Shown here: in pieces, positions 23,623 through 39,352 of the stretch | Numbering within the stretch: position 1 is the first letter of the stretch | Layout: each line of letters opens with the position of its first letter | DNA from: a virus | Length of the DNA: 43,480 nucleotides | IMG/VR virus record: IMGVR_UViG_3300010403_000030 | Span: 1 to 43,480 of that record | Reading direction: 5' to 3' (one strand) | The notes under the pieces: generated by a model | What the model was told of the DNA's origin: nothing | The model's database searches: none | What the model saw: the letters and a program-made list of their open reading frames with translations, nothing else | Program-made: the position numbers and the translations under genes

Positions 23623-23698
23623 TGGCGATCCCTGCGGGGTTCGAACCCGCGATCTCCACCGTGACAGGGTGGCGAGGACTCCGCTCCTCCAAGAGACC
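23623..23698 (-). tRNA. tRNA-Asp (GUC)
   Basis: A full cloverleaf reads on the minus strand. The acceptor is GGTCTCT / AGGGATC (two wobble pairs), the D-stem GAGG / CCTC, and the anticodon stem CCACC / GGTGG with loop CTGTCAC (anticodon GTC, T33 present). The five-base variable loop is AGATC and the T-stem GCGGG / CCCGC has loop TTCGAAC. CCA is encoded. It lies inside the late operon. Confidence 0.95.
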
Positions 23699-25298: not shown

Positions 25299-25667
25299 CT
25301 AGGTCACCAAAACCACCACCGTAGAGGCTAGGGCTGCCTTAATAATGAGCAGCACCCGCCTCTGGCCCGCCGGTGGCAGGCTAGGCATGGTGCGAGCGAT
25401 CATCTGGATAGCCTCTAGCACGTCGCCATCTACCTTAGGCTGAGGCTGGGCCACCGGAGCCGGGCCGCCATTCCCGGTCAGTAGGTGCCCAGCCTCTACC
25501 CCGAGCGCTACCGCAAGCCTAGCGACCGTGGCCGAGCCTGGGGTTCGCTCCCCTGCCTCTATCCTAGAGACCGCGCCGGGCGATAGGCTCGTGGCCCGAG
25601 CTAGGTCCGACATCGTCATACCCTGCCGCGCGCGTGCCTCACGTACCCTCGCTCCGAGCGTATCCAT
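25299..25667 (-). CDS. Cro/CI-type (XRE) transcriptional repressor
   Basis: A 122-residue protein with a helix-turn-helix of the HTH_3 family at about residues 17-40 (MTMSDLARATSLSPGAVSRIEAGE). A Pro/Gln linker and a hydrophobic C-terminal helix follow. It lacks the Ser-Lys protease domain of lambda CI, so SOS self-cleavage is not expected. It is transcribed away from the early operon and has its own promoter. It likely maintains lysogeny by binding the adjacent operators. Confidence 0.88.
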   Translation of the reverse strand: MDTLGARVREARARQGMTMSDLARATSLSPGAVSRIEAGERTPGSATVARLAVALGVEAGHLLTGNGGPAPVAQPQPKVDGDVLEAIQMIARTMPSLPPAGQRRVLLIIKAALASTVVVLVT

Positions 25668-28055: not shown

Positions 28056-28130
28056 CGACTCTTCGCACGGACTGGCCGTAACCCGGCCCCCGCCTAACAA
28101 CCTCAACCGGACTGTAGGGTTCTGACCCCA

Positions 28131-28157
28131 CCCCGGCGTTAACAGCGCCGGGGTTTT
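28131..28157 (+). terminator. Rho-independent terminator, end of early operon 1
   Basis: A perfect 8-bp stem CCCCGGCG / CGCCGGGG with loop TTAACAG, then TTTTCCTTT. Genes downstream must be expressed by readthrough, antitermination or an unseen promoter. Confidence 0.9.
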
Positions 28158-28190
28158 CCTTTGACTCTTGGCGCCCTGAAAGGGCGACCC

Positions 28191-28754
28191 GTGACGGTAC
28201 TCGAGTTCGAAGCGTGGGTGTCTGACAACTACGGAGAGTTGACGAAGCGGGCCAGGATCGCAACAAAGCACTCTGACGAGCATGCAGTGCCTGTGCTGCA
28301 TCAGGTGGTGGAGTACGTCCTAGAGCAGCCAGAGAAGCGCATCCCGAAGCGTGGCGACCTGTTCGCCTGGTTCTACTCGGCCATGGCAATGACCCACAAG
28401 GCTAACCTGCGCGGCCAGTACATCAGGGCCGGTCTTGACAAGGGGATCCTGGCCGACATTGAGACCCTAGGCGAGGGCGAGGCCTTTGCTGATACCAGGC
28501 GTGCCGCCGAAGCCAACCGGCACATCCGCAAGCAAAGCAATGTCAGGGTGGAGGGGTTGGAGACGCTGGAATGGGACGGCCCGATGCCAGGGGTAGCCCG
28601 GTGGCGCTTCCAGACTCTCCGCGACAACCGCCTGTTCGATGAGCGCGCAATTCGTTCACTCGCGGGGAGCATGCACAGGGCCTCGCAGGCCTACCGGCAT
28701 TTCGGGGAGCACGGCTTCGCGTTCTCCGAATTCGGTCAGGAGGCCTCCCGGTGA
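28191..28754 (+). CDS. Hypothetical early protein
   Basis: A 187-residue protein from GTG (MTVLEFEAWVSDNYGELTK). The helical N-terminal half (EHAVPVLHQVVEYVLEQ, FAWFYSAMAMTHKANL) has a faint resemblance to small sigma-factor region 2, but I would not assign it. The ribosome-binding AAAGGG sits in a small stem (CGCCC / GGGCG, loop TGAAA), which could limit translation. It is the first gene after the terminator. Confidence 0.7.
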   Translation: MTVLEFEAWVSDNYGELTKRARIATKHSDEHAVPVLHQVVEYVLEQPEKRIPKRGDLFAWFYSAMAMTHKANLRGQYIRAGLDKGILADIETLGEGEAFADTRRAAEANRHIRKQSNVRVEGLETLEWDGPMPGVARWRFQTLRDNRLFDERAIRSLAGSMHRASQAYRHFGEHGFAFSEFGQEASR

Positions 28755-29341: not shown

Positions 29342-29769
29342 ACCAAGAACTGTGGCACGCGTTCGACCGTATCAAGGATGGCCTAGACAAGCAGGAGCGA
29401 ATGCGCTCCACGCCTACCTTCCGAGAATGGTACGTGAAGGCGCTGCCGCAGTTCTCGAAGTACCTCGACATCGTAGACAAGGCCGATGACGCATCGCCAG
29501 GCGGTCTGCTCTGCGAGTGGATGGATTGGCTAGACGCTCGAGGTCTCGCGTTCCGGGGCCAGCGCAAGTGGAAGATCCCGGAGAAGGGCCCCTTGAACTT
29601 CTACCCGCCGACGATGGAGGGGGTGATGAAGACAGCGGCCGAGCTCACCGAAAGCCTCGGGCTCAGAGATTCAATGCGACGTTCGGCAGCATTACGCGAG
29701 GCCCTTACGACAAAGACCCCTGGGGCCAGTGGCGCAAAGAAGGCAAGGAAGTCTCCGAAGAAGAAGTAG
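29338..29769 (+). CDS. Hypothetical protein with Lys-rich tail
   Basis: A 143-residue helical protein (ELWHAFDRIKDGLDKQERMR, FREWYVKALPQFSKYLDIVD) with a strongly basic C-terminal tail (KKARKSPKKK). Starts at GTG in a GTGA overlap. From about 29640 the -1 frame is also protein-like and leads into the next gene; see the frame-overlap finding. A DNA-binding accessory role is possible. Confidence 0.68.
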   Translation: MNQELWHAFDRIKDGLDKQERMRSTPTFREWYVKALPQFSKYLDIVDKADDASPGGLLCEWMDWLDARGLAFRGQRKWKIPEKGPLNFYPPTMEGVMKTAAELTESLGLRDSMRRSAALREALTTKTPGASGAKKARKSPKKK

Positions 29770-29852
29770 CGCAGTGGTTCGCGGAGCTCGCATCCCGGAG
29801 CCTCCCGCTCACAACGGACAACCTCAACAAAGCATGGGAGGAAGAAGAACGC

Positions 29853-30188
29853 ATGGCTGAGTACGGGCAGAGACAGGCCGCCAAGACTGGCGGCGCTGAG
29901 ATCTGGGACTTCAAGGAAGTGGGCGACAAGCACGAGGGCGTGTACAAGGGCGAGAAGACTCTCGACCCTCAGTACAAGCCGCTGTTCGTGATCGGCGACA
30001 AGCTGGTCAAGAACGTGAAGCAGACGGCCGATGCCATCGAGCCGCTCCCGCTCGGGGCCTACGTGTGGCTCGAGTTCCGGGGCAAGGTCGCCATCAAGGG
30101 CGGCAAGACGGTCAACAACTTCAACATCGAGTTCGCGCTGCCGGCCAATGAGGGTGCGCCGTCGAAGGGCGACGAGGAGCCCTTCTAG
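29853..30188 (+). CDS. OB-fold-like protein (possible ssDNA-binding protein)
   Basis: A 111-residue protein. The core EGVYKGEKTLDPQYKPLFVIGD, ADAIEPLPLGAYVWLEFRGK and a C-terminal acidic tip GDEEPF are consistent with an OB-fold and the acidic tail typical of single-strand binding proteins. GGGAGG lies 11 bases upstream of the ATG. It sits among replication/recombination genes. The assignment is by pattern only, and the true N-terminus may lie further upstream. Confidence 0.5.
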   Translation: MAEYGQRQAAKTGGAEIWDFKEVGDKHEGVYKGEKTLDPQYKPLFVIGDKLVKNVKQTADAIEPLPLGAYVWLEFRGKVAIKGGKTVNNFNIEFALPANEGAPSKGDEEPF

Positions 30189-30370
30189 TGAAGGCCTCCG
30201 AGCGCTGGCTCATGGCCGAGGTCAACACCCACGTGCCCCAGCTAACCAAGGAAGGCCGGGACACGCTGGTCGAGTGGCTCCGCAGCACCGCCAACAGGAT
30301 CGAGATGCTCAAGTGCGACAGTCGTTGGTCACAGCCGCTTCGCAAGTACAGCCTGCGGGTCGGCGAATGA
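30188..30370 (+). CDS. Small protein, unknown
   Basis: A 60-residue helical protein (RWLMAEVNTHVPQLTKEGRD) starting at GTG in a TAGTG overlap with the previous stop. No family recognised. Confidence 0.65.
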   Translation: MKASERWLMAEVNTHVPQLTKEGRDTLVEWLRSTANRIEMLKCDSRWSQPLRKYSLRVGE

Positions 30371-30627
30371 TCAAGACCCCAAAAGCCCTGTTTCACCCCG
30401 ACGGCGCGCTGTTCGTGGTGTGGCACAAGGACAATACGTGCTACTGCCCGGTGATTAGCGACGACGATTACCCGACACCGGCCAAAGGCCTCGACCTCGA
30501 TCATGGGTCGGTCACCGATGTCGAGACCTTGGTGTGGCGCCCGATCCGTATGACGGCCGAGCGCCAGGTCATAGAGTCCGAAGTCGTGCTCTTTCCCTAC
30601 GACTCCGACACTGGCGACGAAGTCTAA
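30367..30627 (+). CDS. Small acidic protein, unknown
   Basis: An 86-residue protein (KALFHPDGALFVVWHKDNTC, PVISDDDYPTPAKGLDLDHG) with an acidic C-terminus, starting in an ATGA overlap. Beta-rich; no family recognised. Confidence 0.65.
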   Translation: MIKTPKALFHPDGALFVVWHKDNTCYCPVISDDDYPTPAKGLDLDHGSVTDVETLVWRPIRMTAERQVIESEVVLFPYDSDTGDEV

Positions 30628-30648
30628 CCCCTAACCAGAAAGGTGGAC

Positions 30649-31227
30649 ATGAAGAAGATTCTCTCGGCAACGGTTGCGGTACTTCTCCTCACCCCGATGC
30701 TCGCCCTCGCGGCCCCGGGCAACAGCGGCAACGGCGGCAACAGCGGTGGCAACGGCGTAGGTAGCGGTGGACAGGGCGGAGGCCAGGGCGTCGGCAACGG
30801 CGGCTCGGGCAACGGAGGCATCGGCGGTGGCAACGGCGGGAACGGTGGTGGCAACGGTGGGAATGGCGGCGGGGGCAATGGCGGCAATGGCGGTGGCGGG
30901 AGTTCTTCGGGCGGCGGCTCGACTTCTGGATCGTCTGCGGGCGCGTCGGCTCCGTCGGCGGGTGGCGCGAGCTCGGGCACGTACGACGGTGGTGCCTCGG
31001 GGCGCGGGGCGTCGTACACGGTAACGGAGCGCGAGCAGGTGCATGCGGACGCTCGCGCCTGTGACCCCATGGGCGACATCACGTTCCGCACGAATGGCGT
31101 GCGGCGCACGTTCACCTACGGCGGCCTCGAGTTCCACCTCCCCACGTTCGTGCAGTGCATGAAGGACAAGGGCTACGAGCTCTCGTCTGCTGGGCGCAAC
31201 GAGCTCACGAACTTCGGCACGCGGTAA
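30649..31227 (+). CDS. Secreted glycine-rich protein
   Basis: A 192-residue protein with a clear Sec signal peptide (residues 1-21, cut after LALA). Next comes about 65 residues of Gly/Asn repeats (GNGG, GGGN units), a Ser/Gly/Ala linker, and a 70-residue C-terminal domain with two cysteines (DARACDPMGD and FVQCMKDKGY). AAAGG precedes the ATG. It is placed in an early operon, so it may act in the periplasm or at the cell surface during infection or lysogeny. No family recognised for the C-terminal domain. Confidence 0.78.
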   Translation: MKKILSATVAVLLLTPMLALAAPGNSGNGGNSGGNGVGSGGQGGGQGVGNGGSGNGGIGGGNGGNGGGNGGNGGGGNGGNGGGGSSSGGGSTSGSSAGASAPSAGGASSGTYDGGASGRGASYTVTEREQVHADARACDPMGDITFRTNGVRRTFTYGGLEFHLPTFVQCMKDKGYELSSAGRNELTNFGTR

Positions 31228-31310: not shown

Positions 31311-31619
31311 ATGTGGCTACGCCAACCATGTGGCGACTGCGGACGTGAGAAGTTCACCCGTTGCCGTTGCAAACGAAAGGTGAAGACGATGAAAGACGGC
31401 TATCCCTGGAAGCGCGGCGGCCAGACCGACCGCCTGTTCATGCACCTCTGCACCGGGAAGACGCTCACGCGCTACGAGGCCGTGATGATGTTCCGGGTGC
31501 AGAACCCCACGGCTCGCATCTCCGAGATCCGCGCCGAGGTCGGTGACGCGCTCAAGGTCACGACCAAGCGCGACCCCAACGGCCAGCGCTACGCCGAGTA
31601 CCGGCTGCTGGTGGGCTGA
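31311..31619 (+). CDS. HTH_39-like winged helix protein with Cys-rich start
   Basis: A 102-residue protein. A Cys-rich basic N-terminus (CGDCGREKFTRCRCKRK) is followed by a winged-helix-like domain of the phage HTH_39 type (DRLFMHLCTGKTLTRYEAVM, ending GQRYAEYRLL). A DNA-binding regulatory role is likely. CCAGGAG lies before the ATG. Confidence 0.68.
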   Translation: MWLRQPCGDCGREKFTRCRCKRKVKTMKDGYPWKRGGQTDRLFMHLCTGKTLTRYEAVMMFRVQNPTARISEIRAEVGDALKVTTKRDPNGQRYAEYRLLVG

Positions 31620-31999
31620 TGAGGCGCCTACTCCTACTGCTCCCGCTACTGCTGGCCGGCTGCATGAGCGACGCCGACGTGGCGTCCTACAACACGTCGA
31701 AGGCGGCGGACATGTTCGAGGTTGAGCGCCGTGTCGTGTTCTACAACGGCATCACCGGCGAGTACATGCTCACCATCGAAGGCCGGTGCTCGCTCGGCAA
31801 CAATGACAAGGAAGGCCGCCTGTCGGTCACCTGCAAGGTGGGCGAGGGGCAGTACAAGAAGCACTTCCTCGGCCTGTCCGACAACGTGACCTTCTTCTTG
31901 GAGCAGATGGAGCCCAAGAAGGCGAGCGCGTACCACTACCGCGTCATCTTCAAGCCGCAGACCATCATCCCCGACATCGACGTGCGGATCGGTAAGTGA
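31619..31999 (+). CDS. Beta-sandwich lipoprotein
   Basis: A 126-residue protein with a lipoprotein signal (LLLAGC, lipidated Cys15) and a beta-rich body with the recurrent phage pattern FEVERRVVFYNGITGEYML, LTIEGRCS and HYRVIFKPQTIIPDID. It is a widespread phage lipoprotein family of unknown function; placement with early genes suggests a membrane or periplasm task such as exclusion. Starts in a TGATG overlap. Confidence 0.75.
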   Translation: MRRLLLLLPLLLAGCMSDADVASYNTSKAADMFEVERRVVFYNGITGEYMLTIEGRCSLGNNDKEGRLSVTCKVGEGQYKKHFLGLSDNVTFFLEQMEPKKASAYHYRVIFKPQTIIPDIDVRIGK

Positions 32000-35821: not shown

Positions 35822-36012
35822 GACACCCGCTGTCCGCAGAGCTTCAAGCGCTGCTGACCGAGTACCGTGACGCCGCCGCTCAAGTCAAGTACCGGGACCA
35901 GCTGATCGAGGAGGCGCAGCGTGACCTCCGCAACAAGAACGAGGATTATCAGATCGCGAAGTACAAGATGGAAGAGGCGCTCAAGGCTCTGATCGAGGAG
36001 TGCGACGCATGA
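35818..36012 (+). CDS. Small coiled-coil protein
   Basis: A 64-residue protein that is nearly all charged helix (VKYRDQLIEEAQRDLRNKNE). Starts in an ATGA overlap and ends in one. Function unknown. Confidence 0.68.
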   Translation: MRHPLSAELQALLTEYRDAAAQVKYRDQLIEEAQRDLRNKNEDYQIAKYKMEEALKALIEECDA

Positions 36013-36419
36013 TCTATCTCATCGGCTCGCTCCGCCACCCTCGCGTCCGTGCCGTGGCCCGAGAGCTTCGCGACCGTCGCATCGAGGTCTTTGACGACTG
36101 GCATGCGGCCGGACCAGAGGCCGATGACATCTGGCAGAAGTACGAGCAGGATCGTGGGCACACGTTTCGTGAGGCACTGAGGGGCAAGCACGCCCAGGAC
36201 GTGGTCGCCTTCGACCGCCGCAACCTCGACGCCTCGCGCGCTGGCATCCTCGTGATGCCAGCCGGCAAGAGCGGGCACGTCGAGCTCGGATACCTGATCG
36301 GGCAGGGCAAGCCGGCGTACATCCTGCTCGAGAAAGAGCCGGAGCGCTGGGATGTGATGTACGGACTCGCGACGAAGATCCTCTACGACCCACTCGACGT
36401 GATCAAGGAGCTAGAATGA
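36009..36419 (+). CDS. Nucleoside 2-deoxyribosyltransferase-like protein
   Basis: A 136-residue protein with the family pattern: MIYLIGSLR at the N-terminus, VFDDWHAAGPEADD at about 30-43, and ILVMPAGKSGHVELGYLIGQG at about 82-102 (catalytic Glu in the ELGY segment). The family transfers or hydrolyses deoxyribose from nucleosides or nucleotides. ATG in an ATGA overlap. Adjacent to a second protein of the same superfamily. Confidence 0.78.
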   Translation: MIYLIGSLRHPRVRAVARELRDRRIEVFDDWHAAGPEADDIWQKYEQDRGHTFREALRGKHAQDVVAFDRRNLDASRAGILVMPAGKSGHVELGYLIGQGKPAYILLEKEPERWDVMYGLATKILYDPLDVIKELE

Positions 36420-36772
36420 AGAAGATCTACCTGGCTGGCCCCATGCGGGGCATCCCCGAGTTCAACTTCCCCCTCTTCAACGCGACGGCGGCATTGCTGC
36501 GGGCGGATGGCTACGAGGTATTCAATCCGGCCGAGCGAGACGAGGCGAACTTCGGCAACATCGCGAACGCCCAGGGCGATGAGGTCGTCTTCGCGGAACA
36601 GGTGAATCTGTCTGTGATGGGGCTGCGCCGGAAGGTGTTCTACGAGGACATGGCCTGGATCTGCCTGCAGGCCGACACCGTCGCGCTGCTACCTGGGTGG
36701 GAGTGGAGCAAGGGGGCTCGCGCAGAGAAGGCCCTGGCCGAAGCGCTGGGCCTCGAGGTGATCGAACTGTGA
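36416..36772 (+). CDS. DUF4406-type nucleoside 2-deoxyribosyltransferase-like protein
   Basis: A 118-residue protein starting MKKIYLAGPMRGIPEFNFPLF with VFNPAERDE, then DMAWICLQADTVALLPGW and KGARAEKALA. This is the DUF4406 pattern within the deoxyribosyltransferase superfamily. It follows another member of the superfamily, suggesting paired roles in nucleotide turnover. Confidence 0.82.
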   Translation: MKKIYLAGPMRGIPEFNFPLFNATAALLRADGYEVFNPAERDEANFGNIANAQGDEVVFAEQVNLSVMGLRRKVFYEDMAWICLQADTVALLPGWEWSKGARAEKALAEALGLEVIEL

Positions 36773-37149
36773 ACGACTTCAAGATCAAGGACTCCGGCAA
36801 CCGCGAGGTCTTCGTGACTGGCATGCACCGCGACACTTCCGAGGGGAAGCTCGACTATACGTTGGTGTTCGACGGCCCGATGCTGGACCGCTACGCCGAG
36901 CACCTGACGAAGGGGGCCAAGAAGTACGCGGCCAGGAACTGGATGCTGGCCGCGACGCCAGAGGAGATGGAGCGGTTCAAGATCTCCGCCGCCCGCCACT
37001 TCCGACAGTGGATGCGGGGCGACACAGACGAGGATCACGCGGCGGCGGTGATCTTCAACCTGAACGGCTTCGAGTACGTGAAGGATAAGTTGTGCCGGCA
37101 GGCCGACAATCAGGCCGACGCCGAGCGCGCTGACCTAGCATGGCCTTGA
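36769..37149 (+). CDS. dATP/dGTP diphosphohydrolase-family protein
   Basis: A 126-residue protein with the family pattern TSEGKLDYTLVFDGPMLDRY, HLTKGAKKYAARNW and RHFRQWMRGDTDEDHAAAV. These all-alpha NTP pyrophosphohydrolases convert dNTPs to monophosphates, altering the dNTP pool. GTG start in a GTGA overlap. The integrase promoter begins inside its last codons. Confidence 0.8.
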   Translation: MNDFKIKDSGNREVFVTGMHRDTSEGKLDYTLVFDGPMLDRYAEHLTKGAKKYAARNWMLAATPEEMERFKISAARHFRQWMRGDTDEDHAAAVIFNLNGFEYVKDKLCRQADNQADAERADLAWP

Positions 37150-37174
37150 CACCTGGCACACAGGCTGGTAAGAT
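37146..37174 (+). promoter_or_regulatory. Integrase promoter (sigma70-like)
   Basis: TTGACA (37146-37151), a 17-base spacer and TAAGAT (37169-37174), 37 bases before the integrase ATG. The -35 begins at the stop of the preceding gene. It allows integrase expression apart from the early operon. Confidence 0.78.
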
Positions 37175-37211
37175 CGGTCGTGTTATGATCCCGACCCTCA
37201 GGGAGGACACG

Positions 37212-38102
37212 ATGCAGCTATCAGCCCTCAGCCGGCAGTACCTCCGTTTCTTCATGGCCCGTGGCGCCAGCCCGCGAAGTGCCGACTGCTACGACCTGAC
37301 GCACCGGCAGTTCATCGGGTATCTGCAGGCACAGGGCCTGACAGACGACATCCGGCACTTCACTGCGGAGAATGTCCAGGCATTCGCCGCATACCTTGCG
37401 GAGAATGGGCGCAAGGCGAGCAGCGTCAACGTCAAGCTCGCGGCCCTGCACTCGCTCGGAGAGTACGGGGTCAAGACCAAGGACGCCAAGGGCCGCTACC
37501 TCCTGGCCGAGAACCCGCTGCTCCGGGTGTACCGGCCGAAGCGGCAGCGCCCGCCCGAGAAGTACCTGAGCCGTGACGAGATCATGGCCCTGCTCGCCGA
37601 GCCGTGCCCAGCGCCAGTCAAGCTGGTGGTGGACATGCTGGTGGACACGGCGCTGCGGGCCTCCGAGCTCGCGACCGCGAACGTCGAAGCCTTACGGGCC
37701 GACGGCGAGCGCGTGATCCTCTCGGTCAAGGTCAAGGGCGGGCGGCACCAGGAGATCGTCCTCGGGGCCGAGGTCGCCGGCCGGCTGCTCGAGTCGCTGC
37801 GCTTCCGTGAGGCGAAGCCCACAGACCCGCTGCTCGTGAACGAGAAGGGCGACCGCTACACTCGCACGACCCTGAGCGAGGCGGTGCTGCGGCTGGCGAG
37901 GCGGGCTGGTATCACCCGGATCCTGGTTCGCGCCCACGTCCTGCGGCACTCGGTCGCGACCATGGCCTCGAGCCTCAAGGTAGACGTGCCCACCATCGCG
38001 GCCATGCTCAACCACTCAGACATCCACACCGCCCAGCGCTACGTCCACCGGCACGATGCCGTGGACGCGGCACGCGAGGCCATCAGGGAGGCGCTGCGAT
38101 GA
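37212..38102 (+). CDS. int: Tyrosine recombinase (integrase)
   Basis: A 296-residue protein with an N-terminal SAM-like core-binding domain (residues 1-85) and a catalytic domain. The residues are Arg149 (LRASEL), Lys175, His242-x-x-Arg245 (HVLRHS), His268 (MLNHSD) and Tyr277 (RYVH). The ATG at 37212 has GGGAGG upstream; longer frame extensions would cover the promoter. It lacks the arm-binding N-terminal domain of lambda Int, so it is XerC/D-like in size. It should insert the phage into the host chromosome. Confidence 0.93.
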   Translation: MQLSALSRQYLRFFMARGASPRSADCYDLTHRQFIGYLQAQGLTDDIRHFTAENVQAFAAYLAENGRKASSVNVKLAALHSLGEYGVKTKDAKGRYLLAENPLLRVYRPKRQRPPEKYLSRDEIMALLAEPCPAPVKLVVDMLVDTALRASELATANVEALRADGERVILSVKVKGGRHQEIVLGAEVAGRLLESLRFREAKPTDPLLVNEKGDRYTRTTLSEAVLRLARRAGITRILVRAHVLRHSVATMASSLKVDVPTIAAMLNHSDIHTAQRYVHRHDAVDAAREAIREALR

Positions 38103-39031: not shown

Positions 39032-39158
39032 CGATCTTCGAGCCGAGGCTCGTCATCAGCGAGCCGAGGCCGCGCCGGATGTACCCGCCGAACACGATGC
39101 CAGCAGCCAGACCACCGAGGCCAGAGAGGAACACGGACGATACGAGGAACTCAGTCAT
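39024..39158 (-). CDS. Small membrane protein in the lysis region
   Basis: A 44-residue Gly/Leu-rich protein with one membrane helix (FLSGLGGLAAGIVFGGYI) and a short basic tail. It starts in an ATGA overlap with the lipoprotein stop. Possibly an accessory lysis or membrane protein. Confidence 0.55.
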   Translation of the reverse strand: MTEFLVSSVFLSGLGGLAAGIVFGGYIRRGLGSLMTSLGSKIGG

Positions 39159-39352
39159 GGGACATCTCCAAAGTCGCACAGGATGGTGTCGCCTGGTCCG
39201 AGGCGTGCGTGTCCACCGGACAGGATGCAGTCTTGGATCGCGTACTGCTTGGCGAGGAGCCGAGCAGCGTAGGTCGAGCAGCCGCCCAGCGCGATCAGGC
39301 AGATCAGTATGGCCAGAAACCCAAGCAGCCAGATCAGAGAATCATGCTTCAT
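39155..39352 (-). CDS. Small lipoprotein of the lysis region (possible outer-membrane spanin)
   Basis: A 65-residue protein with a lipoprotein signal (LGGC, lipidated Cys25) and a short mature part with two Cys. Size, lipidation and location fit an o-spanin, which joins inner and outer membranes at the last step of lysis. It is not nested in an Rz gene, so the role is tentative. Its start overlaps the previous gene by 11 bases. Confidence 0.58.
   Translation of the reverse strand: MKHDSLIWLLGFLAILICLIALGGCSTYAARLLAKQYAIQDCILSGGHARLGPGDTILCDFGDVP

What the first reader, a model, noticed from the sequence alone, without database searches (positions are those of the whole stretch)
30649..31227. 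Secreted Gly/Asn-rich protein encoded in the early operon
A clean Sec signal, a long GNGG repeat region and a conserved-looking two-cysteine C-terminal domain are odd for early phage genes. Candidates are superinfection exclusion at the envelope, a lysogenic conversion factor, or an adhesive matrix protein. The unexplained C-terminal domain is the part to pursue.
Basis: partly seen in the sequence, partly recalled or inferred. Interest (0 to 1): 0.7.

Follow-up and report, generated by a model that had tools for sequence, protein, structure and literature searches.

The report
Exported Gly/Asn-rich orphan phage protein
A temperate podovirus carries, among its early replication genes, a real gene for a protein that should be secreted into the host envelope, with a long floppy glycine tract ending in a small two-cysteine domain; it has no detectable relatives anywhere searched and most likely acts on the host envelope early in infection, a known kind of phage protein.

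Summary
The ORF at 30649-31227 (+) is a real gene of 192 aa. It has a ribosome-binding site, coding-type codon use, a Sec signal peptide with a signal peptidase I site and no lipobox, a ~100-residue Gly/Ser/Asn tract and a ~71-residue C-terminal part with Cys138 and Cys170. "Conserved-looking" is not supported: no relative was found in Pfam, PHROGs, NCBIfam, PADLOC, PDB, phage or plasmid records, viral contigs, 84,980 genomes (pattern scan, close relatives only), or by fold. Much of this phage's early region is equally orphan, so orphanhood is not special to this gene. Nor is export odd here: the gene two downstream (VG64/phrog_478, databased as 'RDF') is a lipobox-bearing exported protein here and in most of 80 viral relatives. 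The short element F..CM[KR][DE]KGY is very rare in cellular genomes, and the six credible cellular proteins found with it or a looser form are all predicted lipoproteins, which points to an oxidised extracytoplasmic domain. The phage is temperate (integrase, repressor-like HTH). Best reading: an exported accessory protein acting in the envelope early in infection, perhaps superinfection exclusion as by T4 Spackle. Export is likely; the specific function is a weak inference.

The parts
30637..30646 (+). ribosome-binding site AGAAAGGTGG
   Evidence: read directly, 5 nt from AAAGG to ATG
30649..30711 (+). Sec signal peptide, MKKILSATVAVLLLTPMLALA|AP, signal peptidase I type (inferred)
   Evidence: n/h/c regions and AxA site in translation; home-made export filter flags it as SPI; weak LPAM_1 hit only, no Cys
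30712..31011 (+). Gly/Ser/Asn-rich low-complexity tract, about 100 residues, almost uncharged; likely flexible tether
   Evidence: pLDDT mostly under 50
31012..31224 (+). C-terminal part, about 71 residues; Cys138 codon 31060-31062 and Cys170 codon 31156-31158, F..CMKDKGYEL element
   Evidence: coding statistics; model with helix-hairpin-helix, mean pLDDT 65; no homologue
31311..31619 (+). downstream neighbour, winged HTH (PF14090 HTH_39)
31619..31999 (+). lipoprotein of the Phage_VG64/phrog_478 family, databased as RDF; second exported protein in the same operon
25299..25667 (-). HTH_3 repressor-like regulator, divergent from the early operon
37140..38102 (+). tyrosine integrase (temperate phage)

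Best explanation
The gene encodes an accessory protein made early in infection or on prophage induction. It is exported by Sec and cut after ALA. The mature protein carries a long, nearly uncharged Gly/Ser/Asn tether and a compact C-terminal domain likely closed by a Cys138-Cys170 disulfide, and it works in the periplasm or at the outer envelope of a presumed Gram-negative host. Its most likely job is to bind an envelope or phage tail component and so limit re-infection or protect the cell during the latent period, in the way T4 Spackle binds the incoming tail lysozyme. Shown here: gene reality, architecture, operon position, absence of detectable relatives. Inferred: export, disulfide, periplasmic site. 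Weakly inferred: exclusion as the purpose.
For: Coding frame, RBS and signal peptide. Early + strand operon next to replication and recombination genes, structural genes on the - strand. An exported lipoprotein of a widespread phage family lies two genes downstream. The strict element F..CM[KR][DE]KGY[DE] occurs 3 times in 84,980 genomes, all three in predicted lipoproteins. Looser versions in 299-398 genomes add three more, again all lipoproteins, with an upstream Cys. Temperate lifestyle. Precedent: Spackle is a T4 early product, periplasmic, 75 aa mature, with a disulfide, inhibiting gp5 lysozyme (PMC7677548).
Against: No homologue or fold match to any exclusion protein. The motif argument is post hoc and rests on six proteins; six viral matches to a looser motif are not evidently exported, and of the other cellular matches L197 is a cytoplasmic start and the rest look like chance frames. 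The structure models are of low confidence. Host is unknown and no expression data exist.
Confidence: 0.35

Rival explanations
1. Lysogenic conversion factor: the protein is made from the prophage and changes the lysogen's surface or envelope.
For: Temperate phage; exported protein.
Against: The gene sits inside the early operon among replication genes with no promoter-like or terminator-like site of its own by a simple consensus scan, so it should be silent in a lysogen if the divergent regulator represses that operon.
Confidence: 0.15
2. Lysis or latent-period regulator: a periplasmic protein that inhibits a peptidoglycan-degrading enzyme or tunes lysis, without a role in exclusion.
For: Export and likely disulfide; Spackle also affects lysis inhibition (PMC7677548).
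Against: No peptidoglycan hydrolase target was identified in the genes I scanned; position among early genes, far from structural genes.
Confidence: 0.15
3. Selfish or near-neutral accessory gene (moron-like), possibly of host origin, exported but with no role in the phage cycle.
For: No relatives found; a low-complexity tract with DNA repeats can form easily; it would sit as a 0.6 kb insert between 30370-30627 and the HTH gene.
Against: GC by codon position and codon use match the phage's own genes; no flanking promoter or terminator as in a typical moron; neighbours are equally orphan.
Confidence: 0.2
4. Adhesive or matrix protein: the Gly/Asn tract is the working part and forms an extracellular matrix or glue.
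For: Gly/Asn/Ser composition.
Against: No surface anchor, no secretion partner, no known adhesive repeat family in Pfam or PHROGs; a single tract of 100 residues.
Confidence: 0.08

Closest known systems
T4 Spackle (gp61.3), periplasmic superinfection-exclusion protein (PMC7677548)
   Same: Early gene, exported to the periplasm, small domain of about 75 residues with one Cys pair, no lipid anchor
   Different: No sequence or fold match found; Spackle is an all-helical bundle and its mature form is only 75 aa, with no long Gly-rich tether; our model has helix-hairpin-helix (low confidence)
Ltp-type exclusion lipoproteins of Streptococcus thermophilus phages (PMC3952083)
   Same: Exported protein of a temperate phage
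   Different: Ltp is a lipoprotein; ours has no lipobox and no sequence match
Phage_VG64 (PF25682) / phrog_478 lipoprotein encoded two genes downstream
   Same: Same early operon, exported, with cysteines in the exported part
   Different: Unrelated sequence; VG64 is a conserved lipoprotein found in 797 phage records
Cellular small lipoproteins bearing F..CM[KR][DE]KG[YWF] or similar (L169-L171, L186, L187, L190)
   Same: Export and the short element; in most, an upstream Cys as well
   Different: Only the short element is shared; a profile of five C-termini finds no further members and no common Pfam family

Membership tests
T4 Spackle-like superinfection exclusion proteins | sequence or fold relationship to Spackle | tested here: not met
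   no PDB sequence match at E up to 10, no Pfam match, no Foldseek match with E below 1; the fold test is weak because model pLDDT is 65
T4 Spackle-like superinfection exclusion proteins | early gene, signal peptide, one Cys pair in a small domain | tested here: met
   operon position and translation; the disulfide itself was not tested
T4 Spackle-like superinfection exclusion proteins | inhibits a tail lysozyme and blocks superinfection | not testable with these tools
   needs bench work
Ltp-type exclusion lipoproteins | lipobox with lipidated Cys | tested here: not met
   no Cys before residue 138; LPAM_1 score 13.9 below its cut-off of 20
virion structural proteins | homology to a virion protein or location in the structural module | tested here: not met
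   no PHROG match; gene on + strand early operon, structural genes on - strand
known or candidate anti-phage defence proteins | match to a PADLOC model | tested here: not met

The most novel reading that the evidence does not exclude
The C-terminal domain founds a new family of phage envelope effectors, a disulfide-closed binding head on a long glycine tether, that blocks superinfection or a host envelope function in a temperate podovirus of an uncultured host.
Probability: 0.12. Interest if true: 0.55.

Novelty: new member of a known kind. Interest (0 to 1): 0.3.

Why it matters
Exported early phage proteins can decide who else may infect the cell and when it lyses, and few have been tested. 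A gene of this architecture with a two-Cys head and no relatives is a concrete candidate. The finding itself is an orphan in a phage whose early region is largely orphan, so its weight is modest until a phenotype is shown.

Tried and rejected
Homology of the whole protein and of the C-terminal 73 aa: Pfam, PHROGs, NCBIfam, PADLOC, PDB, tblastn against phages and plasmids, viral contigs, genome contigs, 398 genomes of one phylum; the weak hits inspected look like chance. Relatives through neighbours: 80 primase loci, 80 VG64 loci, one portal locus, 12 terminase loci; none holds the gene. Scans with neighbours 28161 and 29634 found no relatives at all. A motif scan in viral contigs gave proteins without evident export signals. 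A profile of five motif-bearing C-termini recovered only its own members. AlphaFold without alignment gave low-confidence models and no fold match. Virion-protein and defence-system readings were rejected for lack of any match.

Full report
What is there. The window is a whole IMG/VR viral record of 43,480 bases. A portal/head-tail adaptor of the phrog_332 family, with closest isolates among Pelagibacter podoviruses at 34-40% identity, a terminase, a major head protein and an internal virion protein lie on the - strand. A + strand block from about 25.8 to 40.8 kb holds a GP88-like gene, a winged HTH, VG64, a PD-(D/E)XK nuclease, an endonuclease VII, a primase-helicase and a tyrosine integrase. 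A HTH_3 regulator reads away from it. The phage is therefore a temperate podovirus (inference from gene content), and the finding lies in its early block.

The gene. ATG at 30649, stop ending at 31227, AAAGG 5 nt upstream, 21 bp after the previous stop. Codon scoring trained on 15 genes of the window gives a clearly positive score only in this frame (0.31 overall, 0.53 for the C-terminal part, against 0.01 or lower for all other frames of that part), and third-position GC of 0.90 in the C-terminal part equals that of the structural genes. Two antisense ORFs of 163 and 232 aa overlap it, but no antisense frame has a coding-like score.

Architecture. Residues 1-21 form a typical Sec signal peptide with ALA|AP as likely cut; there is no cysteine before residue 138, so it is not a lipoprotein. 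Residues 22-121 are 52% Gly, 16% Ser and 12% Asn and almost uncharged. Residues 122-192 have mixed composition and contain Cys138 and Cys170, the second inside FVQCMKDKGYEL. AlphaFold without an alignment gives helix, hairpin, helix for this part with mean pLDDT 65; the tract has no confident structure. Neither PDB nor viral model libraries give a match.

Relatives. None detected. Negative searches: Pfam, PHROGs, NCBIfam, PADLOC, PDB sequences, 50,697 phage records, 72,556 plasmids, 2.9 million viral contigs, 84,980 genomes by exact 8-residue patterns, 398 genomes by protein search. The pattern-based scans reach close relatives only. The neighbours 28161-28754 and 29634-30188 are orphans as well, and of 25 early proteins tested only VG64 and the primase have wide relatives among 161 loci, which were fetched through those two genes and the portal. 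The gene is thus no more orphan than its surroundings.

The C-terminal element. To get information from the short element alone I searched F..CM[KR][DE]KGY[DE] in all 84,980 genomes. Three matches exist, in Streptomyces, Arenibaculum and Curtobacterium, and each lies in a protein with a lipobox signal. Looser forms in 398 and 299 genomes add three credible proteins, again all lipoproteins with an upstream Cys. The other cellular hits are short frames that look like chance, or in L197 the start of a cytoplasmic reading frame. Six viral hits to a form without the two basic positions are not evidently exported. A profile of five of these C-termini (ours included) finds no further members, so this is a shared or convergent element, not a family. 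It supports an oxidised extracytoplasmic domain, with the caveat that the comparison was made after seeing the element and rests on six proteins.

Context. The downstream VG64/phrog_478 gene, called 'recombination directionality factor' in PHROGs and RefSeq, starts MRRLLLLLPLLLAGC. In 80 viral loci with relatives of it, a simple home-made export filter finds 80 exported-type ORFs on the coding strand against 2 on the other, most of them VG64 itself. Relatives in a mycobacteriophage, a Bacillus phage and a Sinorhizobium phage carry the same lipobox. So export from this part of the early region is normal and the RDF label is doubtful. Some of these loci carry other small exported proteins, including a Gly/Ser-rich one in L148 and a Ser/Thr/Asn-rich one in L151, unrelated in sequence.

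Mechanism. An early, Sec-exported, likely disulfide-bearing domain on a tether most resembles T4 Spackle in logic (PMC7677548). It is not a member by sequence or fold. I give 0.35 to an envelope-acting accessory protein with exclusion or protection as its purpose; export itself I would put near 0.85. Lysogenic conversion is less likely because no separate promoter or terminator is seen near the gene.

Verdict. Real gene, correct description, conservation not supported, oddness weakened. A new orphan member of a known kind; interest modest.

Noticed in passing
31619-31999 and loci L082-L161, L213-L215: The VG64/phrog_478 family, labelled 'site-specific recombination directionality factor' in PHROGs and RefSeq, carries a lipobox signal peptide in most relatives, including phages of Mycobacterium, Bacillus and Sinorhizobium (797 phage records match). 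It looks like a conserved exported phage lipoprotein and the RDF label looks wrong.
   Followed up: partly
39155-39352, - strand: Small lipoprotein-like ORF (MKHDSLIWLLGFLAILICLIALGGCSTYAARLL...) antisense to early ORFs; could be a spanin-like or accessory lipoprotein, or chance.
   Followed up: no
36000-37149: Nucleoside deoxyribosyltransferase-like (phrog_12607) and dATP/dGTP diphosphohydrolase N-terminal domain (PF18909) close to each other, suggesting altered nucleotide pools or modified bases.
   Followed up: no
28130-28154: Strong terminator-like hairpin (11 pairs) inside the early block, upstream of 28161, hinting at regulated read-through.
   Followed up: no
L148:2558-2989 and L151:1254-1601: Exported low-complexity proteins, Gly/Ser-rich in L148 and Ser/Thr/Asn-rich in L151, near VG64 relatives in other phages, unrelated in sequence to the one here; possible analogues.
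   Followed up: partly
23623-23698, - strand: Complete tRNA-Asp (GTC) gene by ARAGORN.
   Followed up: no
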